Source: Tetmemena sp. SeJ-2015 (Eukaryota > Ciliophora > Spirotrichea > Sporadotrichida > Oxytrichidae). Taken from it: DNA of 64,000 nucleotides. Shown here piece after piece: positions 38,101-59,172 of the stretch. Numbering within the stretch: position 1 is the stretch's first letter; each line of letters begins with the position of its first letter. Below the pieces are notes generated by a model that saw only the letters and a program-made list of their open reading frames with translations, ran no database searches and was not told the origin of the DNA. The stretch spans positions 1 through 64,000 of the forward strand of contig JAJKFJ010020912.1 in the NCBI GenBank assembly GCA_027382625.1, written 5' to 3'. Made by a program: the position numbers and the translations under genes.

Positions 38101-40900
38101 GAGGTGGAGATGTAAATCAACGTAACCAGAAACTCTTACACAGACGTCTCTATCAGAGGAAGCATCCTCTATTTCGTGATCTCTGATCTGGCAGGTATTG
38201 ACCCAATGTACCAGAACTCTCTCGTCTATGTCAAGAAGCTCTTCAATTATGAGATTTATTTATCTTTTTCAATGACGCCATAGTACAAACTCCGGCCTGT
38301 GAGACTCTCCCAGAGAGAATAGAGGCACTGAAAAATTCAATTACTAAGATGCTGTATGTGAGCATTTGCAGAGGACTGTTCGAGGCTCACAAGCTCATTT
38401 ACTCTTTCCTGATCTGCACTTCCATCAAGCGCTAAGCCAAGCATATAAACGAGGTATGCTGGAACTATCTCCTGAGAGGAGCAGGTCTGTTCAATAAGAC
38501 AGATTAACCACCTAGACCAGAGGGCTCCCAACATTTCATCACAGAGCCTGCTTGGGATATCGCATACTGCTTGGAGACTTAGGTACCTGAGAGTTTTGGT
38601 GGACTCTGCGAGAAAGTCAGGAAAAATGTGGAAGCATGGGAGAACTATGTCATCCACGAGGAAGAGTTCTATCTTGAAAATATGCAAATTCAATTGTATA
38701 AGATAGAAGTAAATAAACTAAACTAAGCATAGGTTTTAACAATCTTATTTTTAGTATATTAAATATGCCATGCGGTTTCAGTCAGTCATTAGGCTCATTT
38801 GAGAAGCTGCTGATTCTAAAGATATTCAAGCAAGAAAAGCTGATGTTCGCCTTCCAGAAGTATGTGGAGATAGAGTTAGGCAAACTCTATGCTGAAAGTC
38901 CCATAGCCACTATGGATGCACTCTTTGGAGACTCAGACAAGAAGACTCCTATCATATTTGTGCTCTCTTAAGGAGCAGACCCCACCTATGAAGTTATTCA
39001 ATTCGCCCACAAGATGAACTTCTATGAACGCTTCATGTATAAGTCTCTGGGTCAAGGATAAGAGCTGCAAGCCTCTGAAATGATAGAGAGAGGTAAGAGA
39101 GAAGGCTGTTGGGTGCTGCTGCAGAATTGCCACTTGTTCAAGAGTTGGATGCCTAGTCTTGAAGTCATTTGCGAGAAGTTCAGAGACGAAGAGAAACTCA
39201 TTCATGAGGACTTTAGATTGATCATGACTTCCATGCCTGCTGACTATTTCCCAGCCGCTATCCTTCAGAATGGACTCAAGATGACAACTGAGCCTCCTAG
39301 AGGAATGAAAGCTAATCTGAAGAGATCTTATAACAATCTCATTAGTGAGGACACGTATGAATCTTGCGCCTCTCAAAAGGAAGGAATAGATAATGCGATT
39401 GCGTTCAAGCGTCTTCTATTTGGACTTTGCTTCTTCCATTCAACAGTTTAAGAGAGAAGAAAGTTCGGACCCTTGGGATGGAACATCAGATACGAATTCA
39501 ATGACTCAGATCTCGTTACCTCCATCACTATAATAAAAAATTTTTGAGTGAATAAAAAAATTTATTCTATGCTAAAGAACTTCCTTTTGGATTGCGAAGA
39601 CATTCCTTGGGATGCTATGAAGTTCATGACTGGGTAGATTAACTATGGAGGACGTGTAACAGATGACTGGGATAGAATTTTGCTACTTAATGTGCTACAA
39701 AAGTTCTACACTGATGATATCCTCTAATAAATGCTGATTAACATCAACTAAATTTTATTATAGATATCCTCACTGAGAACTTCTAGCTCTCTTCCTCTGG
39801 ACTTTACTATGTTCCCACTCATTCTAGCATTTAAGAAATTTAGGACTATATAGAGCAGCTTCCCAGCACTGAAGAACCAGAAGTATTCGGCATGCACTAG
39901 AATGCAAATATCGCTTTCCAGCAGTAAGAGAGTGAAAAGATCTTGGTGACTATCCTAAATGTGCAGCCAAGAGTGGTCACTTCATCAACCGGAAAGAGCA
40001 GTGATGAAATCATATTTGAACAAGCTGAGGAGTTAGAGGCAAACTTACCATCTATAATTGATAGAGAGGACCATGCCAAGGATATTTTCAAGCCAAACAG
40101 CAAAGGTCTCTTACACTGTTTGAGTACTGTATTAATTCAAGAGGTGGAAAGATACAACAGACTCCTGACAAAGATGGCTACGAGTCTTGCTCTCCTCATG
40201 AGAGCTATCAAGGGTCTCGTTATCATGAGTCCAGAACTCGATCTCATGTATACTGCTCTTATGAAGAATCAAGTGCCTCCTAACTGGTCTGAGATAGCCT
40301 ACCCATCACTTAAAGGACTAGCATCTTGGATCAAGGATCTAGGATAGAGAGTAGAGTTCATGAGAAATTGGATGAAGCTTGGACATCCCAACACCTACTG
40401 GCTATCTGGGTTCTTCTTCCCTCATGGCTTTATGACAGGAACGCTTTAAACTTTCGCTAGAAAGTACCAAGAAGCCATTGATTTGCTGCAGTTCAAATTC
40501 AAGGTCATGACTTAAACTTCACCGGATGAAATCACAAAGGGCCCTGAGGACGGAATCTATGTCTATGGACTGTTCATTGAGGGAGCACGTTGGTCTTATG
40601 ACAACTTCTGCTTAGAGGAGTAGCTTGCCTGGAGAGATGACATCACAGATGCCAATTATCCACTTCCTCCCCAGCAAGATATTGACATTAGAGCAAAAGA
40701 AGAAGCAGAAGATCGAAGATATTGATACGAATGACTACAAGTGTCCTGTATACAAGACATCTGTGAGAGCTGGAGTACTGTCAACTACTGGTCAATCTAC
40801 GAACTACATTCTTGCAATTGATATTCCTTGCTCTGAAAATGATGCACCAGAACACTGGACTCTCAGAGGAACAGCTCTCCTCTCTATGCTTAATGATTGA
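26171..40900 (+). CDS. DNAH6: Axonemal dynein heavy chain, single-headed inner-arm (DNAH6-like)
   Basis: ATG 26171 (MDQANAIR, then intron 26195-26243); TGA 40898-40900 after the typical ending [17 protein letters not shown]. About 4,300 residues. Tail: [20 protein letters not shown], then linker. Motor: AAA1 P-loop [10 protein letters not shown] (about 32.18 kb) with [18 protein letters not shown] and [19 protein letters not shown]2 [10 protein letters not shown] (about 33.06 kb); AAA3 TGNTGVGKS (about 34.19 kb) with [11 protein letters not shown]4 GVSGCGKQS (about 35.32 kb); coiled-coil stalk about 35.95-37.1 kb; AAA5/6 and the C-terminal domain with [22 protein letters not shown]1 wording ([34 protein letters not shown]) fits DNAH6-type chains best. 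More introns: 26865-26965 and probably about 33,000-33,030. At least 16 IESs interrupt it, in linear order. A one-base break near 40,630 is unexplained. The whole gene sits inside the MA3 locus. Confidence 0.96.
28248..28287. other. IES in dynein, pointer TCTCTA
   Basis: TCTCTA at 28248-28253 and 28282-28287; excision joins NQPGQEVL to QLNDFASNQ. Confidence 0.8.
29110..29144. other. IES in dynein, pointer TCTA
   Basis: TCTA at 29110-29113 and 29141-29144; excision joins NACFQEGL to [10 protein letters not shown]. Confidence 0.75.
29629..29785. other. 144-bp IES in dynein, 13-bp pointer
   Basis: CATTGATGGTAAA at 29629-29641 and 29773-29785. Excision gives [15 protein letters not shown] in frame. 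The interior is also open, so the repeat itself is the main evidence. Confidence 0.65.
30633..30660. other. IES in dynein, pointer GATT
   Basis: GATT at 30633-30636 and 30657-30660; removes a TGA and joins KTLLGQQD to [13 protein letters not shown]. Confidence 0.8.
32066..32109. other. IES in dynein AAA1, pointer ATT
   Basis: ATT at 32066-32068 and 32107-32109. Excision restores the universally conserved [18 protein letters not shown]; the segment lacks GT-AG ends. Confidence 0.9.
33721..33758. other. IES in dynein, pointer ACAT
   Basis: ACAT at 33721-33724 and 33755-33758; excision joins VPVQVAT to [12 protein letters not shown] and removes a TGA. Confidence 0.8.
34751..34788. other. IES in dynein AAA3, pointer ACTAA
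   Basis: ACTAA at 34751-34755 and 34784-34788; restores [20 protein letters not shown], conserved in dyneins. Confidence 0.9.
35570..35599. other. IES in dynein AAA4, pointer TGTT
   Basis: TGTT at 35570-35573 and 35596-35599; restores [16 protein letters not shown]. Confidence 0.85.
35863..35896. other. IES in dynein, pointer CAGT
   Basis: CAGT at 35863-35866 and 35893-35896 flank 26 bp of A/T; joins NVSKKFLSS to [12 protein letters not shown]. Confidence 0.88.
35936..35970. other. IES in dynein stalk base, pointer GAGAT
   Basis: GAGAT at 35936-35940 and 35966-35970; joins MKSKLSE to [13 protein letters not shown]. Confidence 0.85.
36626..36675. other. IES in dynein stalk, pointer GGCTA
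   Basis: GGCTA at 36626-36630 and 36671-36675; joins KFLEKLKG to [13 protein letters not shown]. Confidence 0.85.
38242..38273. other. IES in dynein, pointer TTCAAT
   Basis: TTCAAT at 38242-38247 and 38268-38273; joins YVKKLFN to [16 protein letters not shown]. Confidence 0.85.
39528..39570. other. IES in dynein, pointer CTAT
   Basis: CTAT at 39528-39531 and 39567-39570; removes a TGA and joins DLVTSIT to [16 protein letters not shown]. Confidence 0.85.
39716..39771. other. IES in dynein, 9-bp pointer GATATCCTC
   Basis: GATATCCTC at 39716-39724 and 39763-39771 flank 38 bp of AT-rich DNA; excision joins KFYTDDIL to [15 protein letters not shown]. Confidence 0.92.
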
Positions 40901-41077
40901 GATGATAGTTCCTAAGAAGGCTCCTTCTTTTCAATCAAGTTATTTGGATTATATCTATGGAGGTATTTGTATTCTGATATTGATTGAGCAATTTTAATTT
41001 GGCTTTAAGCTTCGTATGATTATTATCATTTTTACTTATCTAAATTTTAATTGACTTGAGCTTATTAGTATCTTAAA

Positions 41078-41201
41078 ATAGATTGAACTGGGCTTAAAGA
41101 AGACTGATTCCTACATGGAAGAGCTTTAAATTGATGTTCCCAACGCAGTAGAGCAGTACACCATCATCTAGCAGAAGCTAAAGGCAAAGCACATTCAATG
41201 A
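41078..41201 (+). CDS. Last MDS/exon of the MA3 gene, displaced beyond the dynein gene
   Basis: The segment begins with the 12-bp pointer ATAGATTGAACT (41078-41089), identical to 26048-26059, and ends at TGA 41199-41201. Joined to the upstream part at that pointer, the intron (GTAAGG at 26017 to ATAG) splices SYQ to IELGLKKTDSYMEELQIDVP, then NAVEQYTIIQQKLKAKHIQ and stop. This supplies the missing second half of the third MA3 domain, where the family has LDDL.LDIPNA followed by a final helix. It does not belong to dynein, which already stops at 40900 with its own conserved C-terminus. Confidence 0.85.
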
Positions 41202-41373
41202 AAATATTGAAACAAGTCTTTAGGTTTTCTACTCAAGAAGACCTGCCCCCACTCTACGCATAGATTTCGCAATTAATTTACCACTATTCAAAATAAGAAA
41301 AGATAAGCCAGCAAAGTTCCAGCTTGTATTATAGCAATAATTCGTGGACAGATTTTCTCCAAAGCAAATTTGG

Positions 41374-43312
41374 CTGCATCATTTATATAGTGGACTTCAT
41401 CGAAAATGACCCATTCAACGTCTTTGAGAAAGTCTGAATCATTATAAAGCATTTGTTGCAAGATCTCTGTGGTCATGACTATACACTGAGCGTTGGGATT
41501 GAGAGTCATATCTCCAGTCTTTATGCCGACTAGGAAAATATTTAAGGGTACCAAGCTTACCATCCTAAAACTTTTCTTTGAAGTCTCTGAACTTTTGATT
41601 AGACAGAGCCTTGATTGGAGAAGTGAATATGAAACAAATAGATAAATATGCACTTAGTCACATGCTTGAAAGCTAGGGCAATAGCATACTCTGCCACCAC
41701 AGTTTTACCAGCAGAAGTATGAGCTGCAACGAAAACGCATTTGTTCTGTTCAAGCCTGTACACTGCTCTCTTCTGGAAGTCATCGAGCTCAAAGGGGTAT
41801 TCAATAGCAGGCTTTGGAATCATTTCTTTAAACTTACTCATATCCATGGTGTCAATCACATACCACTCATCTCTTTTTTGCATATCTTGGAGAACCTTCT
41901 CTTGCTGACTTCTAAGCAATTACTATATCTGTCTAAGGTTATGAACTCTCCCTTCTTTAAAGGGCAAGTAGGAGATCTTAGCTGTCTTGCACAATAAAAT
42001 CTATCTCATCTAAATTCATTTGTGGGCTTGAGCTCTCTTCCCCTAAGCCTTAGGTAAATGTTCCAAGACCGCCTCCATTTTTCTCTTCCTCAATTTCATC
42101 AGATACTTTGAGATGGGCCTGCTCATTCAAGTCTTTGATCTTGTCTTATCTGTCTTTGCGAGCCTAAGCTTATTAAATTTTCCTCTCCATGACTTTATCA
42201 ATGTCTAGATTTCTTAGCTCGTTTTCCTCCTTGCCTGAGTTGACTCCAGACTCAGACATTAACTTAATTCGAGACTGCTGTAAGAAGTCATGAATTATGT
42301 GATGTTGAAGATTTCTACTTAAATCCTCTCCTTTAATACTAGCCTCAAAAGGCTTTTAGAGTTCTTAAGGGAGTTCTATTGAATTTAGTAGAGCGTCAAG
42401 ATCGCTTTCTGATGTAGGCTCTGCTTGGTCAAAGAATACAGTGTCCAAAATTTGCTGAGAAACATCCACTTTCACACCTAATACACAGTCATACAACTTA
42501 CTATTTTCTTACTTTCAAGCTCTCCACTCTCGTAATTGAACTCACCAACACTTAAAATAATTTAAACCAATTGAGATAAGTTAATCTGTGGCTAATCTCA
42601 AACTTGCCTGTGCCACATCTTTGTTCACTATATCTCCGAAGAGCCTTTCGATTTCTGAAGTGTAAAATTCTGCCTTTTCTTTAGGGATCGATTGAGTCCT
42701 CAAGCACCTGCGAAATACATTTCATAGCAATCTCATTTGTGTCTATTGCAAAAGTCTCCTCAATAACTTCACTTGCTTTCTCATATTTCTCGATGTGCTC
42801 ATCGTACTATAATTAATCATGAGAAATAATCTTGAAAAGCTCGAGTCAAAGATATATCGCAACAAATATTTCTTACAAAGGCAAGCATACTACCGATGAA
42901 GCGTTCTTCATTTGGGAAGGGCTCTTGTATTTTTGCTTTAATGCTCCTGTCTCCCTGGTAGTCAACAGTGAAAAATATTGGCAAGTTAATCTGCTTAGAA
43001 ACTGGATTCACTAAGTTGCTCTTTGGCTCTAAATGCAAATTTTAGCATTATCATTTAAGAATGGAAACTTAAGAATAATCTATCATCTTCTTCAATATAT
43101 TCTGCAAACTTACTCTCTTTTGCTATTCCATCATTAAATCAGTCACTTATAAATTATAATTAAAGACTTATTCCATCCTCAAGCAAAGTGTTAAGGTTTT
43201 AAATCAAGTTGCTGAAAATAGTATTTTCATTATTCTTCTTCTCTTCTTCTCCTGAATTTTGATTTCTCGAAATATCTTGCGAAAATTAAGTCACTTTTCT
43301 TTAAGCAGACAT
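41374..43312 (-). CDS. SKI2: SKI2-type RNA helicase, N-terminal half (inverted germline segment)
   Basis: ATG 43312-43310 (MSAQRKVTQFSQD). The N-terminal region includes [20 protein letters not shown]; a linker with [32 protein letters not shown]; then the first RecA domain: [37 protein letters not shown], Walker [38 protein letters not shown] and DEVHYINDA. It stops being SKI2 exactly after a 10-bp repeat (41374-41383) that recurs, inverted, at 52707-52716 where the protein resumes. One IES has a 9-bp pointer, GATGGAATA; one intron is at 42807-42876, and other introns or IESs lie at about 42.5, 41.9 and 41.55 kb. SKI2 helicases feed RNA to the cytoplasmic exosome for 3'-5' decay. Confidence 0.93.
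43124..43177. other. IES in SKI2, 9-bp pointer GATGGAATA (minus sense)
   Basis: TATTCCATC at 43124-43132 and 43169-43177. Excision joins NTLLEDGI to [14 protein letters not shown]. Confidence 0.8.
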
Positions 43313-43453
43313 AGTCAAATTTACTTCTTTAATATAATATAGCTAAACTGTGATGTTTTTATAGATAATATTTGATGAATGAAAAAGGCTATTAAAATTA
43401 AGGGAAATGAAATATTTGAAATGTTAATAAATAAATTTTTCAGAGTCACTCAA

Positions 43454-45442
43454 ATGGAGCTGAATCTCTACGGGTAAGAATTAGTTAAAATGATTTGGCT
43501 TTAGAATAAGCAGCATAAAGCTTGATAAAATGAAGAAGCGCAAAATAAGAGCGTTCCTACTTGGATGGATTGCAGGTAAGTGAAGATTCAGTTTAAAATA
43601 ATCTAATTCGATCGTAATAAGGAGCTCAATATGTCTTTTAGTGTATGCTGTGACAGTTCTAATAGCAACTCAATTCCCAAAAGCATTTGACTAAAAATTC
43701 TTCAGAGCAGTACCCTCTAATGTAAGATACTTTAACATTTGAAATTAATCTTTTCTTAGCATGATTCAGAGAGCAATAAACTTGAATTGATGGAGTGTAT
43801 TCGAATGCAAAAGGAGTCTCACGATTATTTCGAAATGACAGGAAACATCAGACTCAAAGAACTCACAGAATTGGCCAAGGTACTTTACTTTTCTCATTAT
43901 AACACATCAAATTAGGATGATCAGTTGAGCATAAGATATAGTATATCTTTGTACACGACTGAGAGCTTTGAAAAATTAGAACAATGTCAGTTACCTTAAT
44001 CCAGTTAGATTTCGCAAAAGAACAAAGTCAAGGATGCTTAAAACTGGAACACAATAGTGTAGAATCAAGTTAAGAATAGGACTCTTAATTGCATTAAAGG
44101 TGATGGATCATCTCTTAAGGTAAAACTTTTTAACTTTATAAAAAATGATAAAGTATAGTGCTTGGACATACCACTGATGTAAGGAGATGTAGAGGATTTA
44201 ATGCATAACAACTTGATGCATATCGTCTTTGAAAAAGCTAATTAAACTACGAAATTTAAGAGCTTGAGGTCGAGTTGAAGAAAAGAAATATTGATCACAC
44301 TAAGAGTCTGGGACTAATGAAGTACGTGTTCGTTTTTGGAACCGTTATTTCTTTCATTCTTTACTTTAAATCGGTAAATTAGTATCTGCATTTTATCCCC
44401 CTTTTAGATTTCAAACTTCCAAATGGAAGATCTAGGGCTGATCTAAAAATGGGTCCTGGTACTTTTATTTGCCCTATTTTTCTTTGACGATCCTTTCCAT
44501 GTAGCTAAGAAATTATTTCCCTACAACTCTTATCCGATTCTGTTTTCACTAGCTCAGTCAACTTTCCTCGCAATGATCTTATTCTTCTGGCTCGTGGTTG
44601 TGCATTCAATCTCTTCAAGCGAAGTTATAAACATAGACGAGAGAAGATTCTACTTGCCTAAAGCTGTTCTCTGCTTTGGCATCTGGGTGGTACTGATGAT
44701 TTCGAATGCTTACCTTAATTTGAAGCAGATCAACGACCCAAGCTTCTACTGGAAAGATGACGTAGGTTCCTTTTACAGCACCCTACAAATCTTTTCAGTG
44801 ATACTCTTCCTACTCTACAGCAGTTATTTTGCAATTGTAGCGTATGTAGCCTTCATCTAAATCAAGGACATGAAGAAGTCTTACAAGTTTAGCTTGTTCA
44901 TGACTTTTGGCGTGATATTTGTCTGCATCTCAATCATGGTCTTTAATGGTTATAGAGCTACCCAAAACGACAGTAAGTACTCTTATTTAATTTGACTACG
45001 ATTTTAATCTTATTTTCTATAGCTGTGATGTTTGTGGCATTTTACGCGATGTTCAACATCTACATGTATATAATCGCTTATTTGTACTCACCCTCAGTTG
45101 ACTCTCTCGAGGATTTACAGTATAAGCAAACTCGCAAAGAGCATGAGCACATCATGAATCAGTTTTACGAGCAGGAGCTCCCAGATATCTCTTAGAATTT
45201 AGATTCATCTAGAGTGGGTTTAAAAAGTGGAAATGATCGCAGAAAGCAGGCAGGTTCTAAGCAGAATTTACAGAGTGGAGGAAGTGGTCTTGAGCACAGA
45301 AGGCATCTCAAAAGAGATCCAGAGCAAAAGGCAAAGGAGAAGCTTTAAAAGTTTATCATTCATTTTTATTTAGCTATGGGAAAGTATAATAAAAGAGACT
45401 GAAGATGAAGAAAGCAGTGATGATGATGAACACTAAATCTGA
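43454..45442 (+). CDS. TMEM181/Wntless-like multi-pass membrane protein (putative)
   Basis: ATG 43454 (MELNLYG), GT-AG intron 43474-43504, further GT-AG introns in the next 300 bp and at about 44.97-45.02 kb; TGA 45440-45442 after an acidic end ESSDDDEHQI. A luminal-type domain (SIRYSISLYTTESFEKLEQC, NWNTIVQNQVKNRTLNC) is followed by a membrane domain: KYVFVFGTVISFILYF, WVLVLLFALFFFDDPFH, LAMILFFWLVVVHSISS, FGIWVVLMISNAYL, IFSVILFLLYSSYFAIVAY, FMTFGVIFVCISIMVF, MFVAFYAMFNIYMYIIAYLY. An N-terminal luminal domain plus about seven helices matches the TMEM181/Wntless group; this is inferred from topology rather than a strict motif. A frame break near 44,235 sits at an A run. The gene lies between the two halves of SKI2. 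Confidence 0.72.
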
Positions 45443-45510
45443 TTAATTTATGCAAGTATCTTTCAATTCATTTAATGCCATAGTTTCAAGAGTTAAAGAG
45501 AATTCATCGT

Positions 45511-47046
45511 TCAAAAAATACTGCAATATGTAGATTGATTGTCTGGATGTGGTTGGAATTTCTATTCTTCTAAAGTGATATTGATCATCTTCTTTTTCGA
45601 TGGACTCTTATTTTAACTTTACTCGGCTTAGTTTTAATTGTGACCTAATGAATCTTGGCCTGGACTTGAATCTCTCGCTCTTTTCTTTTTCTCAGCTGAT
45701 GCCTGGTAGTACGGAATCTATGTACATCACATCATTTAAGAAATCATACTAGGCATTATAAATTTAAATCATTAGACTACACTTGCTTGTTGATTAAATG
45801 GCCGTACTTCATTTCAAGAGCTTTAAATTCAGGAATAGACTGAATGTTAGTGCCTCCTTCAAATTCAGTGATTATGCTGTTGTTTCTGAAATAGGCGAAC
45901 ACCCATCGCTTCTCTTGTTTATAAATGTAAAGACCAAGGCCTTGCATACGCCCTCCATAGAAGTATCCTCTATGGATATCTCCATTCTAAAATTACACCC
46001 TCCCTAATCCTTCTAAGAGTCATTAAAATTCAATTACAATTTAATCTCATAAGTCCATCCTTAAAACAGCCAATGTCAAACTTATCATAATCATCTCATA
46101 TAATTAAATTTCTTAAAAAATATTACTTCTGGTCTTGATGTACTGTAATTCCAATTCCATTTGGCTAATTATTTACACATGAAGATCTATTAAAATTAAA
46201 GCACTAAGATATAATTATCGTTCCATGTTCCCTCGTGTCTACTTCCATCTCTGCTGTATCTTATTCCGTTTCCATTATATTTGCCATTCACAACATCTCC
46301 CATTAAAAATTAAAACTAGTCTCCCTCGAAGTGATTGAAAAAGAAATCTTTGGCTTTATATAGATAGTCTCAGACATATTATTCTACCTAGTATCCATTG
46401 ATCCTCCAAAGCCCATTTCTTTGTTAATCTCTAGGCTTTGAGGTTTGCCCTTCTCCTTTCTAGAGATTAAAAATTATAGATTCCTAATGGCAAGCCCGTA
46501 TTCATAGTCATTCAATTCCCAAGAGCCAGTTGAATGGTCATGAGTGTAGTACAATCCCTTTCCCATGCCTATTTACCGTCGCTTACCTCTCCGAATGTAG
46601 AAGTTTTTAGTGTCTGGATAATAAAAAGACCCCTCTCCCATGCATTTTACCTTACTTGAAATCCTCCTTTGTAGAAATAATTGAGTTTAGAAAAGTAAAG
46701 CCCTCCCTTTCCATGCATCTAATCTTCGGACCACTCTCCGTTATAGGCATCTCCGTTCTTGAAAAGCATTATTCCATTTCCTTGTCGTATTTTCACTAGT
46801 TACTGATTCCTATTTTCATTCTTATTGGGCGAAGTGAGAGTCTTTTATATAATTGCATCTCCTTCATACATGCCCTTGCTATCTTCAATCCTTTCAAAAG
46901 AAAATTGAAAATTATATAATAAAGAATTATAAAGATGCATCGTTGATGTAGGCAGAGGAGATCCTGAGTCTTTTCCCTGAGGTACTATCATCTTCAAACT
47001 CCTTTACTTAGAGAGGAATCTATTCTTTTCCTAGAGTTTATTCCAT
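45511..47046 (-). CDS. MORN-repeat protein
   Basis: ATG 47046-47044 (MEQTLGKEQIPL), TGA 45513-45511. Several MORN repeats are readable: MYEGDAI, NGIMLFKNGDAYNGEWSED, MHGKGGLYF, NGNGIRYSRDGSRHEGTW, PNGIGITVHQD, NGDIHRGYFYGGRMQGLGLY. The C-terminus is charged (SAEKKKRARDSSPGQDSL). IES with pointer TCTTT at about 46.89-46.94 kb joins INDASF to ERIEDSKG; other breaks lie at 46.6, 46.4, 46.15 and 45.75 kb. MORN proteins bind membrane lipids and scaffold cortical or basal-body structures; the exact role here is unknown. Nested between the halves of SKI2. Confidence 0.75.
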
Positions 47047-47106
47047 GTGGCTTTTATTTTACAAGAGTAATTTATTTACTTTAAAATTAAATTAAGTTGA
47101 ATATCT

Positions 47107-47811
47107 TCAATTCGTGCGAAGAGGAAAACAAATTTATGGAAAATGAAATTAAGGGTAGAAGATTAGTTTCAGTTATTGTTAGCATATAGCACTTTCTGTA
47201 CATCTTGGAGGAGTCCCTGCCCCTTTATCTTCCCAGTTTAGTTACTCTCCAAGTGCTTCTACCTTTCTGCATTTCTCAAGAAACACATTTCTTTCCCTCA
47301 TGAGCGCCAACTACTTAGCTCTCATGGCCTTTTCTTATTCTAGACATTTCTAATGAAGTTAAATCAGTCTCTGCAACTTATCAGATAGGCTAAATTAATA
47401 TAGAAAAGGATTAATTTCAATTAAACGATTATATAAGATAAAAATTTAATCAATGCTAAAAACATTGCCTCTTTAATCACAATTTAAAACTAAATCTTTT
47501 ATCATCAGATAATTAAACATGATTAAACTGGGAGGCTTGCATTTTTTAGTTTCTAAAAGAATAAAATAGATAAAGATAAATAATTCTTACATTAAAAATA
47601 TATAGACTTCAACAGCCTCTAATTTAATCCATCTTAACTTATGATAAAAAATATAAAGAATATTCAATACATTACCATCCATAAAGATCTAAAAATTATT
47701 TCTTACTAGGAGAGAGCCTCCTTCGTGTCTTTATCCTATTCCATAAGCTTACTCAACTTGCACAGTAATTTGCCTTATGAGTTCCCATAGTTGGCTCTTA
47801 GTTTAACTCAT
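47107..47811 (-). CDS. Small coiled-coil protein
   Basis: ATG 47811-47809 (MSQTKSQLWELIRQITVQ), TGA 47109-47107. First part: QVEQAYGIGQRHEGGSLLV and NNFQIFMDG; then an AT-rich interruption of about 250 bp (47.42-47.67 kb, intron and/or IES) and a helical segment KLQRLIQLHQKCLEQEKAM, LALMRERNVFLEKCRKVEAL. No domain recognised. Exon or MDS borders at the interruption were not resolved. Confidence 0.55.
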
Positions 47812-47859
47812 TATTTCTTAAAATTTTTTAATTCTTAAAACACAATTTAACTTTAATTA

Positions 47860-50851
47860 TCATTGTTTAATAAAATTAAGGAAAAGCTTATAAATTTCAT
47901 TTGTTGTTTCACTCTCATAATCTTTGGCTATACTATCTTTGGTGCTTCATGCCGAAGTGCACCCTCCTCCTACATAAGTCAACTTAGCTCTCTTAGTCTT
48001 TTAATCCCCATCTCTAAAAGTCTAATCTACTTGATTATCGAAAAGGGAGTGCTTCAATTCAAAAATCTTTGTGGTCCTTAATCCTCAGAGTCTATCCATC
48101 TCTAGAAGGCAATTAAATCTTCTGCTAAACCTTGTGGGAAATTCGGGAGAATTAATTTAATTGAAATACACCTATGAGGAACTCTCCTTCTCAAATCTTG
48201 CAGTGGCATTCATATTCTTAATGGTGTTTGAAAGTGTTGGACTGCTCTCGTTGTGCTTTAGCTTTTAAGTCTAGGTCAAAGTTCTTTGATCAAAAGTTAG
48301 GTGGGCTTAAGAGGATGAGGATATGGGGTCCTCCTCCTACCCCCTACAGAAAAATCCTAGGTTTAATTCAAATTAGAGCCCCTAACTTGACTGGCATATC
48401 TCTTATCAACACCAGATCCAATAGCTTAATCAACTGTAGCTCTCTTATTCCTATATCCTTTAGGTTGATGATTAAGTGAAGACTTTGAAATTATGAATAT
48501 CTCAGGTTCAAACTGTTCTTTTTTACTTGAAGAACCTAAATCCTTGATTCTATGTGAATTGCTTATCGAGTTTGATATTGTTGAGACACTTTACTCTTTG
48601 TTCATTTATTATTCGCTGCCTTCTCTCCTTCAAAAGTTCTCCCTCTGGCTGTAGGGATTTTCTTACTATTAATTTGGTTCTTGTTTGTCTAAATGAGGAG
48701 ACTAAATGATCTTGATGAACTTAATCATCCCATTCGTCTCTTCTATATCGTGTTAGCTTATCAGTTCAGTATTCTGAAAAGGCGATTAAATCAGAAGCTA
48801 TCTTGCTTTTGACTATTGGACTTTCCTAAGTTGCATTTGTATTTCCCTTTGCATTTTACTCAACTGAGCACATAGACTGGCTCAAAATAGCTTGAGTGCC
48901 CATGTCCATCATCCCCTACCCCCTAAATGAAAAGCGATCATTCGTAGCTCTAACTAGATGGTTGTTTAAGGGCTAGTAGAAATTGGGCCCAGTTTGATAG
49001 TGGTCCTCTTTCTATCTTTGATTTGCATTGAAATAAGCAGTCTTATTTGGCTTTCTTTTTAAGAGCTCTCTTTATTAGAAACTTGCCTTTGTTACGAAGT
49101 TTATCTTCTAAACTTCCAGCATTCTTTAGGAATCCAGTACTTGCCTTTGAGATTATTGCTACTTCTTTTTCCTCAAACTCTCTATCTGATCTTTAGTTAG
49201 AAGTGTAGCATTCCTTGCTGCACAGTATTTCAATTTTTGCAGTTCTTAACTATTCTCTTGCAGATTTAAAAAAGGTAGTTTAAATTGTTATTATAAAATA
49301 ATAAGAATTAAAAGGGTATTAAGACTTTTATATATTTTAAATTCCCTTAAATTTTATATTTGAAATATGCTCATTATAATTTAAGGCCTTTCCAGGTTTG
49401 TTATTTTTATTTCTATCAGATAATTGACTTTCTTACACTTATCTATTATAGTATTGCTCTTTACGTATAGATGTCTAAGAGCCTCTCCTATCAGTGAGAG
49501 AATTTGAACTTTTCTTGATTTCTTAAATGCTCTTTACATTTTGCAATGGGCTGTACTTCTCTGCGTTACTATATTCCGCATATGTGTTTTCGTGGTGCTT
49601 CTAAACTTAGTTTGACTATTTTTATGCAAGTTTCTGTTTTATAACCAAACTTATATCACTGTTCTAATTAGCTACTAGTTTTTTGGATCTTGGCTGACTG
49701 CTGTATCTTAATCGGTTAAAACTTGCATTCTGATTCTGATGTATCCTAGTTGCGTCCTTAATGATCTCTTAGTGCTATTTGAACAAGTCACTTGAGCTGA
49801 AAATCATCTTTTAATTCTACTAAAGCATCTATAATGCTTTGTTCAAAACAAAAAATTTACAAATCGGAATAAATTGTTGCTATTCTGCTAAAAGATCTTT
49901 TTATCTTAACTTATGATTCAAACCCAAAAGCCTTTCTTATTACTGCGAGTTGATTTAAAGAGCTAGTTCTCAAGTGAGATATCTTACTTGCATTATTAAA
50001 TGAAATATTTCTGTTATCACCATTATCGGATAAGACTGTCTCCCTTGGATTAGCCAACTAATTTTAAATAGACTCGGAACTTAATCTTCTATGATTGAAG
50101 TAATTGCTTGTAGCCTAAGGGTGCTTAGAGATTTAAAAATTTGGTTTTGATATAATAGAACTCTTTTTAGTTCTAGATTAGTTCTAACTCAAAGGCTTCT
50201 ACATAAACGAGCCAGTGCCAGAACTGCCTTGCAAAAAATTAAACATAAGATGGATATAAAATTAAAATTAGAAGTATCAACATAAGGATTCTTTTAAGAA
50301 GAAGGATATGTGGATGCAGAGCCAAGAGCACTTTATGTAACTCCCGCAGCAGATGGAATTTACTTTTTATAGTTCATGCTCTCTATGAATTTCTAAGTCT
50401 GATCCTTTAAATAAGAAGTGCTCTCGAAAAGCTTCTCTATTTCGACGAATTTAGGTGGATCCTTTCTCTTTATCTCTGGCCATCGATTGAGTTCTGAATT
50501 GAACTTCAAGTTGTCAGGATAATTATTTTGAGTGATATAGATTTTTGGTCCTTTGTAGTCTTTCATATCCATAGTCTAATCTTGCATATTTATCATACTA
50601 TCGTCAGGTAGAGTGACTCTCATAGTTGCTGTATTATTGGCTGTGTAATTTGTGCAACTGCTGGTATTTAAATTCTTCGGGTATATTTGAGAACCGCTTT
50701 GCCTTATTTGAGAAATGGATTCGTTGTTCTGATTAGAAATTCGTACTCTCTAGTATCGCTTTAGGAAAGTTCCCTCCGCTTAGATGTCAGGCTCAAAAGT
50801 AAGTTGTTGTTGAGGACTTATGTTCCTCATTTTGCTACTACTATTCTTCAT
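47860..50851 (-). CDS. Ser/Asn/Lys-rich protein, unknown function
   Basis: ATG 50851-50849 (MKNSSSKMRNISPQQQLTF), TGA 47862-47860 (ending LFLNFIKQ). Coding blocks: NNYPDNLKFNSELNRWPEIK, KDPPKFVEIEKLFESTSYL (50.85-50.29 kb); EPLSQNQSRTKKSSIISKP and SLNQLAVIRKAFGFESQVKI (50.2-49.86 kb); a less clear basic/Ser-rich region (49.8-48.5 kb); KHSLFDNQVDQTFRDGD and AKLTYVGGG near the end. Largely disordered. AT-rich breaks at about 50.25, 49.3 and 48.1 kb are probable IESs. No function assigned. Nested between the halves of SKI2. Confidence 0.55.
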
Positions 50852-51000
50852 ATTAATTAAAAAAAACTTAATCAGCAGCAGCTAATTATAATAAATTGAA
50901 CTGTAGTTTTGCTATTCATATCTCTAAATTATAATAATTCGTGTGTTCTTCATATAGGAAAACAAATTAGATAATTGAATAAATAGTTTTTACTACTAGA

Positions 51001-52635
51001 TCAAAGAATCTTGAGTTTTGTTTATTTTCCTTATTCAATTTCCTATTCAGGATTCTCAACCACTATCATACTCACATTTTGATCATCCTCTAACTCCTCC
51101 TTTTACTTCTTGCTCGTTCCTAAATTCTAGTCTATCACCTTCTCCAAGAGCTTCATAAATTCTTAGCTATCGGGCATAATGGCCTGGTCAGTGCACAATC
51201 CCAACTTCAATTTTCCATTATGGGAATATAGAGCTGTCGAAACTCCGCAACTTCCAGCTGGAATAAAAGTCACCCAGGACTTTATAGTCTTTCTCCCCTT
51301 GTAAAGAAGGGGCTAGACTGGACCAGGGATGTTTGAGAACACTAGTGTGATTTCAGAGGTCATCATATAAAGCAACTTGTGAGAGATGAAGTAAGAACAG
51401 AAGGTTGCGAGAAACATCGTTACTAAATAGTTAGACATAAAATCTGAGGAGGCTTTTATCTCCTAAAATATAAGTAAATAGTAGAAGATAAAATTTTCTA
51501 AAATGCTTAATGCACTTAAGTCAGCTATTCATTAAAGTCTTTGCTTATTCTCAGTTTTAAAAGCTCTACAGAGAAGTGATTGGAGACTTGAATGTCCTTC
51601 ACATCTATAGGCTTAGAGAATCTGATATTTATTGGGATAGACACTATCACCTCATTTTAAATGTAAAATAAAGTGTGCCTCATTTGTGCAAGACTTGTAT
51701 TTCTCAAAATATTATTACAGTGTGACTCCAAGAGAGGCTGTAAAATAGTCATTGATAGTGACATTAAGCTCTTTACACCTATGTTTAACTTCTTCAAGGT
51801 CATAATCTTTAGAGACCTCACAGAACTTCTTTCCACTCATCTTAAACTTAGCTTGTAAAGGATTCTGGGTTCCCTTCAGAAATAAGTTCTTGAAGAGTGC
51901 TTTAGGCACCTTCAGAAGTGCGTATGCATAGATCAGTGCCTGCTGCATAAAACTCACTTCTCTAATGTTTGGAGCATTTTTAGGATCGTAAAAATCTGAC
52001 GAAGTTAAAGCGCAAAACTGCGCAGAGAGTCCATCTCCAAGAGCATGGTGAATCTTTAGTATAAAGGCACTCTCAGTTTCTGAATAATTTTCGAAGAAGT
52101 GAACTTGCCAAAGTGGCCTATCTAATGGCAATCTTAGAGGTAAGATTTGCTCCATGAATCTAGAAAGCTCCTCTTCAGAATGTATCTCCTCTTTTCTGTC
52201 TATAATTATTTTTGAAGCTTCTTCAATTGGCATCTCCTCAAAATAGAAATCACCCCCGACCTGCACTATCTTCTGCCTCATGCGCTTTAAATTTCTCATG
52301 ATACGATCCACCATCTGACTCTTTAAATCTGCAAACGATAGCTTCTCAATAATCATCGTTGCTATAAATAAAGAAGGTAAGTCAAGTGTCTATGTCTTTT
52401 ATCTCTCTAACTTTAAGTGTATTTACTTACAAGCACAATTGCAAACTGCGTCGTCGTTATCAAAAAGGCATAAGGTGTCTTGAATTGAGAGGGGATCGAT
52501 GTTATAATACCAGCCCACTAGCTTTCGATATGTAAGCTAGAAAAAGAAAATGGACAACAAAGCTGTAGTCGTAGGCAGCACATATGCCAGAGAAAATAAA
52601 ACCAATACTTTCCCGATAGAGGCTAAGGATGTCAT
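51001..52635 (-). CDS. WS/DGAT-type acyltransferase (wax ester synthase/diacylglycerol acyltransferase)
   Basis: ATG 52635-52633, GT-AG intron 52362-52430, TGA 51003-51001; about 480 residues. An N-terminal hydrophobic segment (VLVLFSLAYVLPTTTALLSI) anchors it in a membrane, probably ER. The catalytic motif HHxxxDG is intact as KIHHALGDGLSAQF. Further family features: PLRLPLDRPLWQVHF before it; the helix DLEEVKHRCKELNVTINDYF; EVIVSIPINIRFSKP; SEITLVFSNIPGPVQPL; and SCGVSTALYSHNGKLKLGL near the end. These enzymes esterify acyl-CoA to long-chain alcohols or diacylglycerol, making storage lipid. An AT-rich break at about 51.47-51.56 kb is a probable IES. Nested between the halves of SKI2. Confidence 0.88.
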
Positions 52636-52706
52636 CTACTTATTTTTGTTTGATTAAATCTCACTCAATCTAGCCTCTTACATCTCTCCTCTCCGCAAAT
52701 TATTAT

Positions 52707-55605
52707 AATGATGCAGTAAGCTATTGAAATTTTTTTAAATACTGATTAGGATAGAGGCACAGTTTGGGAAGAAATCATTATGAAGCTGCCAGATAGAATA
52801 AGTTTTGTGATGCTCTCAGCTACAGTTCCTAATTACAAAGAGTTTGCAGATTGGGTTGGCAGAACTAAGCGCAAGGAAATCTATGTGCAGATGACTGACT
52901 ACAGACCTGTGCCCTTACAGCATTAGATTCTCTACAAAGATAAGCTGTTTATGGCGAAGGATGAATTTGGAAATTTCAGAGGTGATGAAGTTAGAAAGGT
53001 CATCAAGCAAGAAAATGAGGATAATAAAAAGAAGCGTTATGATAACAACAATAAAAGAGGGGGGGAGAGGAATAGAAAGAAGAAGCTAAGCAGGATAAAT
53101 ATAGCGAGAAGAAGAAAGAAATCGACTTTAAGGAGAAAGCTTTAAAGGCCAAGGAAAAGTCTTTGAAATCAGCTGCTTCCAAAGCGGTTAGAGTAGCAAA
53201 CGGGGGCGGCGGATAGGGTCCTAACTCCCAAGCGAAGTCTTAAAAGAAGTATGAAAACTTCCATAAGTATATCTTAGCCATCTCGAAATAATAGATGCTC
53301 CCTTGTATAGTGTTCTGTTTCTCAAGAGCTTTGTGCCTCGATATTCCCCTAATCAATTAGATGAGTCACTTGATCTTACTACTGGATAGGAGAAGGGTGA
53401 AATCAAAAGGTTTTTACATCAGAAACTCTAGAGATTAAGTGAAAACGATAGAACTCTACCTCAAATCTTAGCAATAGAGAAGATTCTTGTGAGGGGTATC
53501 GGATATCATCACGCTGGAATGCTTCCAATTGTCAAAGGAAATGTTAATTTCTGAAACTTAAATGAAATATTTCAAATGGTTGAGATTCTATTTGCAGATG
53601 GCTATCTCAAAGTTATCTTTGCTACAACAACTTTCGCTATTGGTTTAAATCTGCCGGCAAGAAGCGTAATGTTTACCAATCTCTTCAAGTTTAATGGAGT
53701 TGAGAAACTTATACTAGATGCAAGTGAGTACCTATAAATGGCAGGAAGAGCTGGTAGAAGAGGAAAGGATACAGTGGGAACCTGTCTCTTGACCTTGGAA
53801 AGGCAGTTTGGTAAAGTACCTGATTTCTCAGAGTTTGAACAAGTCCTTACCAGCAAGGGAACTCATCTGGAATCTAAATTGAAACTCAGTTACCAAATGG
53901 CCCTAAACGTCATCAAATCGGAAGGATGTAATGATCAACGATATCCTCAGACTCTCATTTATATTGAAACTATTTTTTGCATTCTTTGAGAATGAAAACG
54001 AGAAGCAAAGAAAGCTAGCAATCTCAAAGATGCAAGGAATACAAGTGAAACTGCAGAAAGCTTAGAATTTCGAATGCACCTGTGGGAAGCTAGATGATAT
54101 TGAGATAATTGCAGATTACTGCTAGAAAATAATCGACAAAAATCGACAGATTATGCTAATGGAATAGAGAGCAGTAGTTGAATATTGCGTTGTAGAGGTC
54201 ATCACTCCAAAGTTTCTATTTGAGCCTATGATCGTCCTCAACACCGACTAGAGGCAAGGAACTTTGCTCTGTCTATATCTTACTAGAGACTTGAGAAAAG
54301 AAAATGTGGATGACTTTTATGGCGACTATCAGTAGCCTGAAAATGGTCCGGGCTCATCAGGTAGAATAAATGGAACCTATTACGAGTAAAACAAAATTCA
54401 AATTTATGTTATTATCTGTAATAGAGTATGTGAGGCTGCAATTCAGAAACGTCAACAAAGTTTAATTAAGTATGACAAAAATCTTATGTCATATTTTATT
54501 GGAATAAATTATTTTAAGTGTTCAACTTAGAGTTGCAAAACAGAGGATTTGTGAACAATGAAAAGTTCTTTTAAAGATTTCTTTTATTTTGTAATGATAA
54601 ACTGGTAGCCTTTGAATTTTGTGATAATCTTATTTTTATAGAATCCAAAGCTCCTAGAAAAGATCATTGATGAGTTCTTCAGTATCAGATAATAATATCT
54701 CATAACATTAAATTAACATCTTTTAAATACAAATAAGATCGTTTCCAATCTATAAGCTAGACAAGAAATCAGATGTAGCCGTGAAAGAGAAGTCTGATAT
54801 TTGCGACTTCCTTAAGCAAATGCCAGCATTCAAATGCCAAAGAGCCAAAAATCACATGACTCAAGCCTTCTCACTAAAAATTAATTCTCTTTATTTTATA
54901 GAATATATTCTAAAGCAGAGCCAGTAATTTACTATGCGTGTTTATTTTGCAGGAATATGATGGACGAGCAAGGAGAGATAGCAGGCAGCAGTGGAGATGA
55001 CAAACTTAAAGACTTCAAGGCTAAGGTGCAAGTGCTTATTCACTATAAATTCATAGACAAGGATTTGAATTTGCTCTACAAGGGAAAGGTGTCTGAGGTA
55101 ATCCACTCTAACAAGTTCTTGACCACTGAGCTTATCTTTTCTGGCCTGCTCAAAGAGCTCACAAACGAGGAAATAGTAGGACTCGTCAGTACTATCTCAG
55201 TGATGAGAGGTACAAAGCGAGACGATGCAGTAGATGACTACATCAGTGAGGCATTCACAAAGTCTCTAGATTTCATCGAGCAAGAGGCCATGAGACTAGC
55301 GAGTGTGGAGCAAAGCTACGGAGTGTAAGATGCGGCCCAAGACTTCATGGAGTATATGGACATGTCTTACTATGGATTACTTTACGACTGGGCATGCCAG
55401 AAGCCGTTCTCAGAGATCATGGCCAAGACTTAAAAGCAAGAGGGAGACATCGTAAAGATAGTGCAAAATGTCAAACAATCCCTCACGTACATAAAGAGCG
55501 CAGCTAGAATCATAGGAGACCCACAGCTCGCAGAGGGGAATGGAGTAGTGCATGCTTCTCATCAAGAGAGACATCATCTTCACTCCAAGTCTCTATTTAG
55601 AATGA
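52707..55605 (+). CDS. SKI2: SKI2-type RNA helicase, C-terminal half
   Basis: Begins at the 10-bp pointer (52707-52716), followed at once by an intron (52716-52749). After splicing, NDA from the other half continues as [89 protein letters not shown] and the motif VI region [17 protein letters not shown]. The C-terminal helical DSHCT-type region includes [27 protein letters not shown] and [10 protein letters not shown], and ends [16 protein letters not shown] with TGA 55603-55605, close to SKI2 proteins of other eukaryotes. Frame breaks at G runs (about 53,060 and 55,540) look like sequence errors; an IES with pointer AAATG is at 53539-53564. Others lie at about 54.0, 54.4-54.7 and 54.9 kb. 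Confidence 0.93.
53539..53564. other. 21-bp IES in SKI2, pointer AAATG
   Basis: AAATG at 53539-53543 and 53560-53564; excision removes an in-frame TGA and gives [17 protein letters not shown]. Confidence 0.75.
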
Positions 55606-55749: not shown

Positions 55750-58700
55750 TCACTTCATGACAGCCTTTAATTTGGGTGCGAAGGCCGGACTAAAAGCATC
55801 ATCTATACGTTCAAAGATTTTAAACTAAGGCTTTGCAAATTACTGTTCCCCAAAAATAATAAACAAAGAAGATTTTTCATAAATTTAACAAAGTTCTTGT
55901 TATGAGTAATAAGTCCTCCCTTCTTAATAACAGACTGCTACTGCAGTAAGCTCCTTAGGTAATAATTTATTCCAGTTAATTTGGAATCATTTTCCATATC
56001 TGATTTATACTTTTGAAGATCTTCGTAATTTTTAACTTTATAAGAGGTACTCTTTCCGTTGTATTATTATTCAGCAGAGATTTATTATGAACTCATTTTT
56101 TCTTTTTCTTAAGGTTTAATTAAAGGCAATAAGATAATAAGTATTTTAAGGCAGGATGTTGTTGTCAATGTTTTTCTTTTAGAGTTGATTGATATAATAT
56201 CTATAATCATGCTCCATGTCTTTTTCTTCCTCCTAGCTGAGATCTGTATAGAGTCTCCCCTAAACAACTTTCCTTGAGAGAGATGATTAGCTATTAGAGC
56301 GCGCTCTGTCAATAGAACTATGCTCCCCCTTTTGGTCTAAAAAATTGGGACTTCTTTGGGAAGTTTTAAGATTTTCCTAGAAAGTGGAAATATTTTATTT
56401 TATAGGTGCCTAATTTTTATTTGCTGAAAAAGGTTGAAAATTCAGAGTAAGCTTGATTTCCATATTAGAAGGTAAGATTTCGCTCTTGGATGGAGTATGC
56501 GAAGAATGAGTTGCATTCTGATTTTATTTGAAAATGGTGGCTTGCTTATTCAAAACACTTTACTACCTTCTCTTCCCGTTTTTATAGTTTATTATCAATT
56601 TGAAATTTATTAGGTTGTCAGGAAAATATTTTTATTTGTCTGATCTGCTGTCATGGGTGTCCCAGACTAAGCATAATTAAGAGGAATATTTTGCGAACTC
56701 TTCCTTTGAATAATTTAGGAATTATTAAATGTAAGATCAAGCTACCTCTTATTTTAGGTTGGAGATTTTTCAGCTTTATTATTCGCATTTGAGACATCAT
56801 TCTCAAAATTGATGGCTTTGTGTTGTGACTTTTCTTATTATAACTTTTTTTATAGCTTTTGTTTCAGCTTCTGAATTATATTGGGAGTTGATGGATTATT
56901 AACTATTTTGAACTTATATTTTGACTACCTCTTGTTATAATTTTCAGCTTGTTTGTGGATAAACGAGTCAGGACTTTTAAGATTCTCTAAGTTAGAGTTG
57001 TCTGCCTTTTTATACTGAGACAAGGAGGAGAAGTTTCTCTAACCTTAGGAGTTTAGGAAACTCTAGGTTGCTTCTAGATTCTAGGCTTATCCAATATAAT
57101 GAAAAGTAATCAGTAATTATTTATAATAGTATGTATCCCTTGAGAGTTGTATCATTGGTAGAGAATCTGCCCAAGGTAGTAAGATTTTAATTTCTGCTTT
57201 TTTAAATGGTATTTAGCTTCTTCTCTGATTATTGCTGGCTTTCAGATCTCTAGTGATTGAAATTCTTCATGAAGCTATAGCGATGATTACTATGGCTGCT
57301 CTCGATGCCGCTCCTTGCATCTTGCTGGTACTTCATTTTACTGCTCAGGCCTTTTACAGAGTCAATGTGAGCTACCTAATTACGATTCTCATTTAACCGT
57401 TACTAGAAGGAATAGGATGGAGTGGGGGTTGTGATAATAGAGGTAGTGGTGTTGTCATTTTTTATTTAGCCCTTAGGAAAAGAATTTTTAGTGGTATCAG
57501 AAGAAGGGTTATAAACAATCTAAATCACATTATATATTAAAAAGCAGTTATAATTATGAATTTGACGATACTGACTTCTCAATTTGTCTAGTTAAATGTA
57601 AATAATATAATATTATAGAAATAGTTTGTGCTGAAGGTCTTAAGGAGTTTGAATTCTAACATCACTTTACCTATATGAAGGATTAATGCAACAATAAGTG
57701 TGTACTTGGAATTAGGAGATTGCACACCTATTAAAGGCAACGTAAATCTATCTTAGAGATCATTAATTTTTCTTCAATTTTTGGTAGAGTAATATTCGCT
57801 CTCTACCTCTTGGTTTTAAGTGAGGACTTGAGAGTAACGTTCATTAAAAAAAATTATCTTTAATGAATAGTTCATGTTCTAAAAGTCTATGATTCGGACT
57901 TTGTTGATAACTTGACTATTGCCTCTCCTCCAGTAAACTATTTTAGGTAAGCTCTCTTTGTTAACTTATTTAGAAGTTCGCTTAACCTCCTCTTTTATAA
58001 TTTGAGAAAGAAGAAGTAGAGGGAGGTTCTAAGTTGTCTCTGCTTTATTAATGAGGAGCTCTAGATAGCTGGTTGGTGGGAGTTGCTGATTCACTCATTT
58101 ATTATATAATATAATATGAAATAATTTTAATTAAGGGAATTAAAGGGAATTAAAGGGCCCCCGGCTTAAATAAGATAGGCCGTGACGTCAATGATATTGC
58201 TGTGACGCACTTATCTGACGCACACAAACCTACCAGCCGAATAGGGATATTAAAACACGTGCACCCCCGCCACCTCACATCTGAGCAGAAGCCCCGGCTT
58301 CTGCAGAACCATCCAAAAAACACCTAAAAGGAGAAAAAAATCGGTAAGCTTCGGACCGGGAACAAATTGCTGCTCCGGGAGCGTCTGGCTTCGCTGTCCA
58401 ACTGCATGACTGAGTGTTTCCCCATAGATCTCGTCCCTCCACGCCTAACAAAGGTTAAAGGGGGTGAGTGGGAACCACTCACCTTTGATTATCTCTCCAG
58501 TAAGCAGTTCAACCACCTTCCCCAGGGCTTCGGCTGCCATTATCCCTTGCCTCTTTAAGCACTCACCCACCAGCCAATGGATTACCAAACCAGAAAGCCT
58601 TCAGGGAAAGGGCGACCGGTGCCTAGTGCCGGTCGTGTGCGTCCTGAATTTTAACTTTCTAATTTTGAAATAATTTTAATAATTTCTAAAGTGGTAGTTA

Positions 58701-59094
58701 TATAGGAGCCTATTTCAGTGTGATTTCTTTAGTGAAAAGGAGGCTTTTTCACACTAGCACCAAATTTATCTTTCTGTTTTGGAATACTCTTGTCTATCTA
58801 AAACAAACATGTGTATAGATAAAGCAATTAATGCAATTATTATTTGTTGTCTATTTCATTTCTGGAGTTATTGAGGAATACCTCTTTCTTTGCGAGATAG
58901 AAGTTCTTCACTTGGAAGTGCTTATTCTCAAGGACTCTGTGAACTTAGAACTGGTGGTGGGTTTAATTTTTCGAAGATTGGGATTAATCCAGAGAGCTAG
59001 GGGCTTAGAAGAGAGGTTGAGGTTTTATATCCATTTTTAAGTAGGCGTCGTATTCAGACTCCCTCTTGTTCGCCTACGAATATCGATTATTCAT
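55750..59094 (-). CDS. Ser/Asn/Gln-rich protein, unknown function, carrying a GC-rich insertion
   Basis: Best start ATG 59094-59092 (MNNRYSQANKRESEYDAYLK), TGA 55752-55750 (ending FAPKLKAVMK). The first coding block runs 59.09-58.68 kb (FQAPSSLDQSQSSKNQTHHQ, VKNFYLAKKEVFLNNSRNE). It then enters a GC-rich 549-bp insert that stays open and in frame, and continues at MSESATPTNQLSRAPHQQ (58.1 kb). Further blocks: NDNTTTSIITTPTPSYSF (57.4 kb), SQYKKADNSNLENLKSPDSF (56.95 kb), DLSQEEEKDMEHDYRYYINQ (56.2 kb), DSKLTGINYYLRSLLQQQ (55.95 kb). AT-rich gaps between them are probable IESs. No domain seen. Alternatively translation could start at the internal ATG 58098. Confidence 0.58.
58117..58680. mobile_element. 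GC-rich inserted element, copy 1, flanked by a 15-bp direct repeat
   Basis: TGAAATAATTTTAAT occurs at 58117-58131 and 58666-58680. The ~534 bp between is strikingly GC-rich against the local AT-rich DNA. It contains perfect short hairpins at 58285-58304, 58463-58483 and 58614-58634. A second, diverged copy lies inverted at about 59184-59690. The deletion unit is 549 bp, a multiple of three, so the surrounding minus-strand frame is kept with or without it. It resembles a short non-autonomous element with target duplication, or an IES with a long pointer; no transposase is encoded. Confidence 0.7.
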
Positions 59095-59172
59095 TAATAA
59101 ATTTTATAAAGTCCCTCCTATAATCAAAATCATTATGATGTGCTTTCAGCAATTATCATTGCACAATTTATC

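What the first reader, a model, noticed from the sequence alone, without database searches (positions are those of the whole stretch)
41374..52716. SKI2 helicase is scrambled: two halves in opposite orientation, joined by a 10-bp inverted pointer
The minus-strand half reads SKI2 up to DEVHYINDA and then loses all similarity; the plus-strand half begins mid-domain at DRGTVWEE. The break falls at AATGATGCAG, present as its reverse complement at 41374-41383 and directly at 52707-52716. Joining at this repeat gives [18 protein letters not shown] once the adjacent intron is removed, exactly the conserved continuation. Splicing cannot join opposite strands, so a DNA inversion during macronuclear development is required.
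Basis: partly seen in the sequence, partly recalled or inferred. Interest (0 to 1): 0.93.

Follow-up and report, generated by a model that had tools for sequence, protein, structure and literature searches.

The report
Scrambled ciliate gene needing DNA inversion
In the germline DNA of a single-celled ciliate, the gene for the RNA helicase SKI2 lies in two oppositely oriented pieces joined by a 10-letter repeat, so the cell very probably flips DNA to rebuild it; this is a well-made new example of a known ciliate trick, not a new one.

Summary
The window looks like germline (micronuclear) DNA of an unnamed spirotrich-type ciliate. SKI2 lies in two pieces on opposite strands: 5' piece on minus, 43312 to 41374; 3' piece on plus, 52707 to the stop at 55605. 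AATGATGCAG occurs in the window only at these two breakpoints, inverted. Joining there and removing a 34-nt GT-AG intron gives [17 protein letters not shown], as in SKI2. A join with this exact spacing arose in 1 of 50,000 shuffles and 1 of 49,693 random segments. No second SKI2 copy and no joined copy was found in the 146-Mb assembly. Two other genes there show pointer joining: DNA polymerase alpha (inverted 16-bp pointer, two contigs) and MTR4 (direct 11-bp pointer, 9.8-kb gap). SKI2 also holds two short inserts with their own direct-repeat pointers. Best reading: a two-block scrambled gene repaired by programmed inversion in macronuclear development. No macronuclear DNA, RNA or reads were available, so the repaired molecule is inferred, and the 3' piece carries single-base frame changes that I read as assembly noise. 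Inverted scrambled genes are well documented in spirotrichs: a new member of a known kind.

The parts
41374..43312 (-). 5' piece of SKI2 (MDS cluster 1): start codon at 43312 through the Walker A (AHTSAGKT) and DEVH motifs, ending in the pointer
   Evidence: tblastn of four homologues for the helicase part; frames; start codon (chosen by eye, the N-terminal part was not confirmed by homology)
41374..41383 (-). pointer copy 1, AATGATGCAG, at the 3' end of the 5' piece
41632..41650 (-). internal eliminated sequence candidate, 19 nt, flanked by direct repeat CATATT; removal gives [22 protein letters not shown]; no GT-AG pair fits
41530..41560 (-). 31-nt GTAAGC...CTAG intron between QD and VGIKTGD
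   Evidence: sequence and length; position read
52707..52716 (+). pointer copy 2, AATGATGCAG, at the 5' end of the 3' piece
52716..52749 (+). 34-nt GTAAGC...TTAG intron; its first G is the last pointer base
52707..55605 (+). 3' piece of SKI2 (MDS cluster 2): DRGTVWEE through helicase C and DSHCT domains to SLYLE and TGA (55603-55605)
   Evidence: DSHCT E 2.3e-27; Helicase_C E 2.6e-06; stop coordinate read
53539..53573 (+). internal eliminated sequence candidate, 35 nt, flanked by AAATG and holding a TGA; removal gives ..SKEMVEILF.. in one frame but leaves a one-base shift against ..MLPIVK.. upstream
   Evidence: the homologues lack this insert
41384..52706 (.). segment between the two pointers that must be inverted or bypassed; carries the SKI2 5' piece and other loci
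43450..45440 (+). Wntless-like transmembrane protein gene lying between the SKI2 pieces (outer limits approximate, by eye)
   Evidence: PF06664, E 3.1e-28, ORF 44321-44992
46512..47165 (-). MORN-repeat ORF lying between the SKI2 pieces
   Evidence: PF02493, E 6.3e-06
51001..52683 (-). wax ester synthase/diacylglycerol acyltransferase gene; its start codon (52683) is 23 bases from SKI2 pointer copy 2; 3' limit approximate
   Evidence: PF03007, E 4.3e-12; start codon by eye

Best explanation
This is a two-block scrambled gene in a ciliate germline genome. The SKI2 coding DNA is split at a 10-bp pointer, with its two blocks in opposite orientation about 11.3 kb apart and other genes between them. 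While a new macronucleus develops, recombination between the two inverted pointer copies joins the blocks and keeps one copy; inverting the 41374-52716 segment is the simplest geometry. Short eliminated sequences are removed at their own direct-repeat pointers. The transcript then loses a 34-nt intron whose donor G comes from the pointer. Shown here: split, orientation, pointer, restored protein at the join, germline features, no second copy found. Inferred: that the rearrangement happens, its timing, any template-RNA guidance (described for related species), and that the gene works.
For: Exact inverted repeat present in the window only at the two breakpoints. Homology switches strand there, and the join leaves no residue missing or repeated. 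The exact-spacing join is rare by chance: 1 of 50,000 and 1 of 49,693. It aligns ungapped to a solved SKI2. Germline state: 150 DDE_3 transposase matches among 150 scored of 921 candidates, a ~520-bp repeat (40 scored of 691 candidates) and two IES-like inserts inside SKI2. SKI2 is found only on C1991: 6 of 14 matches, from 16 candidates; 4 more are MTR4 on C2960 and the other 4 are weak. Both junctions match only themselves and the joined form is absent at up to 3 mismatches. Same-assembly controls: DNA polymerase alpha with an inverted 16-bp pointer in contigs C1943 and C4161 (identity checked), and MTR4 with an 11-bp direct pointer across 9.8 kb. Pointer length fits print: about 9 bp on average between scrambled segments, 4 bp between unscrambled ones (PMC2394655, passage).
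Against: No macronuclear DNA, RNA or reads were available. The locus sits on one contig only. Apart from the one at the AAATG insert, the 3' piece has four single-base frame changes (near 53058, 53346, 53925 and 55540), which could also mean decay. I saw one such change near the dynein 3' end and 70 single-base gaps in 9859 aligned bases between two contigs of the polymerase locus, so indels are common here, but I measured no error rate for C1991. Copies of SKI2 may be missing from the assembly. DDE_3 also rings in 3 of 14 control prokaryotes, and for the C4A4 pattern (21 matches) the tool's reversed control gave 28, which does not discriminate because the reversed pattern is the same array in another phase.
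Confidence: 0.88

Rival explanations
1. An ordinary evolutionary inversion broke SKI2 in this germline lineage; staggered breaks left a 10-bp inverted duplication, and the gene is now dead or made from another copy.
For: Staggered-break inversions can leave short inverted duplications at both ends (recalled). Four single-base frame changes, besides the one at the AAATG insert, all seen in the 3' piece.
Against: No other SKI2 copy was found in the assembly. Helicase motifs are intact up to the break on both sides. A frame change also occurs near the dynein 3' end, and two contigs of one locus differ by 70 single-base gaps in 9859 bases, so indels are common in this assembly, by error or by allele. 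DNA polymerase alpha in the same assembly is split the same way. An evolutionary inversion is also the likely origin of a scrambled gene, so this rival differs only on whether the gene is repaired in development.
Confidence: 0.08
2. Assembly or amplification artefact: the true germline has an intact SKI2 and the 11.3-kb segment was flipped in silico or by chimeric reads.
For: Single contig; frame changes; an inverted, 78%-identical repeat arm elsewhere on the contig.
Against: Both breakpoints fall on the same 10-mer and both would have to be artefacts; 10 bp is far too short to mislead an assembler (inference). No second copy of the two flanks in the window (blastn of 41199-41383 and 52381-52716). 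The intact form is absent from the assembly.
Confidence: 0.03
3. Two unrelated partial SKI2 paralogues lie head to head by chance.
For: Scrambled loci are often linked with local paralogy in print (PMC9797194, section 8).
Against: The pieces meet with no overlap and no gap at a shared in-register repeat, and between them cover SKI2 from before the Walker A motif to the DSHCT end.
Confidence: 0.01

Closest known systems
Scrambled actin I of Stylonychia lemnae (segments 1 and 2 inverted)
   Same: Blocks of one gene in opposite orientation in germline DNA, joined at pointers; inversion required (PMC2394655, passages)
   Different: Actin I has ten blocks and also needs permutation; SKI2 here needs one inversion plus short deletions
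Scrambled DNA polymerase alpha of hypotrichs (named among studied loci in PMC9797194, passage; details recalled)
   Same: Inverted pointer in a coding region; the gene is split on opposite strands in this same assembly
   Different: Different gene; 16-bp pointer and about 4 kb apart here
Nested 'Russian doll' loci of Oxytricha and Tetmemena
   Same: A pointer pair bridging other loci (PMC9797194, passages)
   Different: Only the presence of genes between the pieces was seen here; their macronuclear fate is unknown

Membership tests
Spirotrich scrambled gene with inverted MDS | Parts of one gene in opposite orientation in germline DNA | tested here: met
Spirotrich scrambled gene with inverted MDS | Identical pointer at the end of block n and the start of block n+1, inverted, in register | tested here: met
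Spirotrich scrambled gene with inverted MDS | Join at one pointer copy restores the reading frame and conserved protein at the junction | tested here: met
Spirotrich scrambled gene with inverted MDS | Germline genome with IESs and transposons, code with TAA/TAG as Gln | tested here: met
   inferred from sequence, no paired macronuclear genome
Spirotrich scrambled gene with inverted MDS | Macronuclear chromosome with one pointer copy at the join | not testable with these tools
   no macronuclear data held; joined pattern not in G000
SKI2 helicase | Closest solved relatives are SKI2 rather than MTR4 | tested here: met
   composite: six SKI2 chains 463.9-468.2 bits, best MTR4 chain 415.5
SKI2 helicase | C-terminal DSHCT domain | tested here: met
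   PF08148, E 2.3e-27

The most novel reading that the evidence does not exclude
The 10-bp pointers let the 11.3-kb segment exist in both orientations in the macronucleus. Unscrambling SKI2 would then also change what lies upstream of the acyltransferase gene, whose start codon is 23 bases from one pointer copy, so one inversion would couple assembly of one gene to expression of another.
Probability: 0.04. Interest if true: 0.6.

Novelty: new member of a known kind. Interest (0 to 1): 0.3.

Why it matters
It adds a clean, minimal inversion case: one inverted join at a 10-bp pointer, other genes enclosed, in a conserved gene with no second copy found. That makes a good test bed for how short inverted repeats are paired over 11 kb. 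Its paralogue MTR4 is split a few tens of residues further on by a direct pointer in the same assembly, so an inverted and a direct join can be compared on sister genes.

Tried and rejected
Looked for an intact SKI2 or a joined copy in the assembly: none found. The C2960 hit at 59% identity first looked like an intact paralogue across the join, but it is MTR4 (DEVHYMRDKERG) and is itself split by a long gap. Looked for leftover similarity of the two flanks to the rest of the window, as expected of recently duplicated blocks: none. The in-frame test used an off-by-one start for DRG and failed on the real sequence; it was corrected, and only one search is relied on. Expected the indels to lie mostly in homopolymers; between two contigs only 17 of 70 single-base gaps do. 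Scanned for tRNAs with the bacterial setting: none. A search for SKI2 as a scrambled gene gave no paper.

Full report
The 10-mer AATGATGCAG occurs exactly twice in the 64-kb window, at 41374-41383 on the minus strand and 52707-52716 on the plus strand; shuffles average 0.23, and 2 of 100 had two or more. Read with TAA and TAG as glutamine, the minus strand gives the 5' part of SKI2 and the plus strand the 3' part. I ran tblastn with 4 of the 120 homologues listed; all four switch strand around YIND/DRG. Two minus-strand alignments stop at YIND and two run three residues further without real identity. Joined at the repeat, with a 34-nt GT-AG intron removed, the product reads [17 protein letters not shown]. 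It aligns without a gap across the join to the solved SKI2 chain 9g8r_A. The 546-residue composite scores 463.9-468.2 bits against six SKI2 chains and 415.5 against the best MTR4 chain.

Chance was tested in two ways. A shared string of 10 or more bases between a 50-nt and an 80-nt stretch arises in 0.52% of 19,884 random placements, 0.57% of 19,926 with the 5' side fixed and 0.84% of 19,906 with the 3' side fixed. Of 50,000 dinucleotide shuffles of the 3' flank, 519 had such a match, 444 could be read in frame somehow, and 1 gave YIND-x-DRG; of 49,693 random window segments the numbers were 290, 199 and 1. So the exact spacing, not the open frame, is the discriminating part. An earlier form of this test had a one-base error and is not used.

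The DNA looks germline. The assembly has 146.2 Mb in 5213 contigs. It holds a ~520-bp repeat (40 scored of 691 candidate places, copies 92-94% identical) and 150 DDE_3 transposase matches (150 scored of 921 candidates; the family also rings in 3 of 14 control genomes). C4A4-type arrays give 21 matches on 3 contigs, 18 of them on C2828; the tool's reversed control (28) is the same array in another phase and says nothing. SKI2 itself is interrupted by a 19-nt insert flanked by CATATT with no usable GT-AG pair, and by a 35-nt insert flanked by AAATG with a TGA inside. Removing the first gives the conserved protein directly. Removing the second gives KEMVEILF, but leaves a one-base shift against the upstream frame.

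Frame changes need telling in full. Besides that one, the 3' piece has four single-base frame changes (near 53058, 53346, 53925 and 55540). I saw one near the dynein 3' end. Two contigs that carry the polymerase alpha locus differ by 70 single-base gaps in 9859 aligned bases, 17 of them beside the same base. Such indels are therefore common in this assembly, whether errors or alleles, and I read those in SKI2 the same way. But they could also be decay, and only sequence data can tell.

No second SKI2 was found: of 14 matches to the composite (16 candidates) 6 lie on C1991 and 4 on C2960; the other 4, on C3483, C1983 and C3071, are weak. C2960 is MTR4. The two junction regions match only themselves, and the joined form is absent at up to 3 mismatches. 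The assembly may be incomplete.

Two other genes serve as controls. DNA polymerase alpha (identity checked) is split on opposite strands in two contigs that are 97.9% identical over 9.9 kb, so they may be alleles. A 16-bp inverted repeat, CTAACAGTATGTATGG, is present at both breaks in both contigs, and joining there gives AIKLTANSMYGCLGFGSSRF. MTR4 is split on one strand with 9.8 kb between the parts; an 11-bp direct repeat, TCTTCTTATCT, joins it into VKYVFLSATIPNAREFAEW. The organism therefore carries pointer-split genes, including an inverted one.

Between the SKI2 pieces lie a Wntless-like gene, a MORN-repeat ORF and an acyltransferase whose start codon is 23 bases from the pointer. Enclosed loci are known from nested loci in Oxytricha and Tetmemena (PMC9797194, passages). 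The pointer's last base is the first base of the intron. Intron positions near pointers are also in print (same paper, section 10).

What is known: inverted scrambled genes are established. In Oxytricha 5285 of 18,111 chromosomes are scrambled, 21.4% of these by inversion; in Strombidium cf. sulcatum 2901 are scrambled, 69.4% by inversion (PMC10901763, section 19). Pointers between scrambled segments average about 9 bp (PMC2394655, passage). The present case fits these figures. I found no paper naming SKI2 as scrambled, which is one search of an incomplete library.

What is not shown: the macronuclear molecule, its transcript, and germline reads across each break. These would settle the matter. 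My verdict is a real scrambled gene of a known kind.

Noticed in passing
58155-59672: A ~520-bp dispersed repeat (copies 92-94% identical across the assembly) followed about 0.5 kb later by an inverted, 78%-identical copy with longer homopolymer runs; it looks like a low-quality or decayed second copy.
   Followed up: partly
L055 (C4161:8001-18000) and L056 (C1943:137001-147000): DNA polymerase alpha is split on opposite strands with a 16-bp inverted pointer in two contigs 97.9% identical; a third contig (C5004) carries part of the locus at 95.4%.
   Followed up: yes
L074/L075 (C2960:27001-43000): MTR4, the sister helicase, is split on one strand by 9.8 kb with an 11-bp direct pointer, a few tens of residues downstream of the SKI2 break position.
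   Followed up: yes
40899-41201: After the dynein heavy chain stop (near 40898), a short plus-strand open stretch (IELGLKKTDSYMEELQIDVPNAVEQYTIIQQKLKAKHIQ, stop near 41200, read by eye) of unknown origin lies next to the SKI2 break; it may be a piece of another gene.
   Followed up: no
53050-53960, 55530-55560 and 40680-40760: Single-base frame changes in the SKI2 3' piece (four besides the one at the AAATG insert) and near the dynein 3' end (one); two contigs of the polymerase locus differ by 70 single-base gaps in 9859 bases.
   Followed up: partly
C2828:3860-4156 (in L059): G4T4 arrays lie inside a 20.3-kb contig rather than at its end.
   Followed up: no
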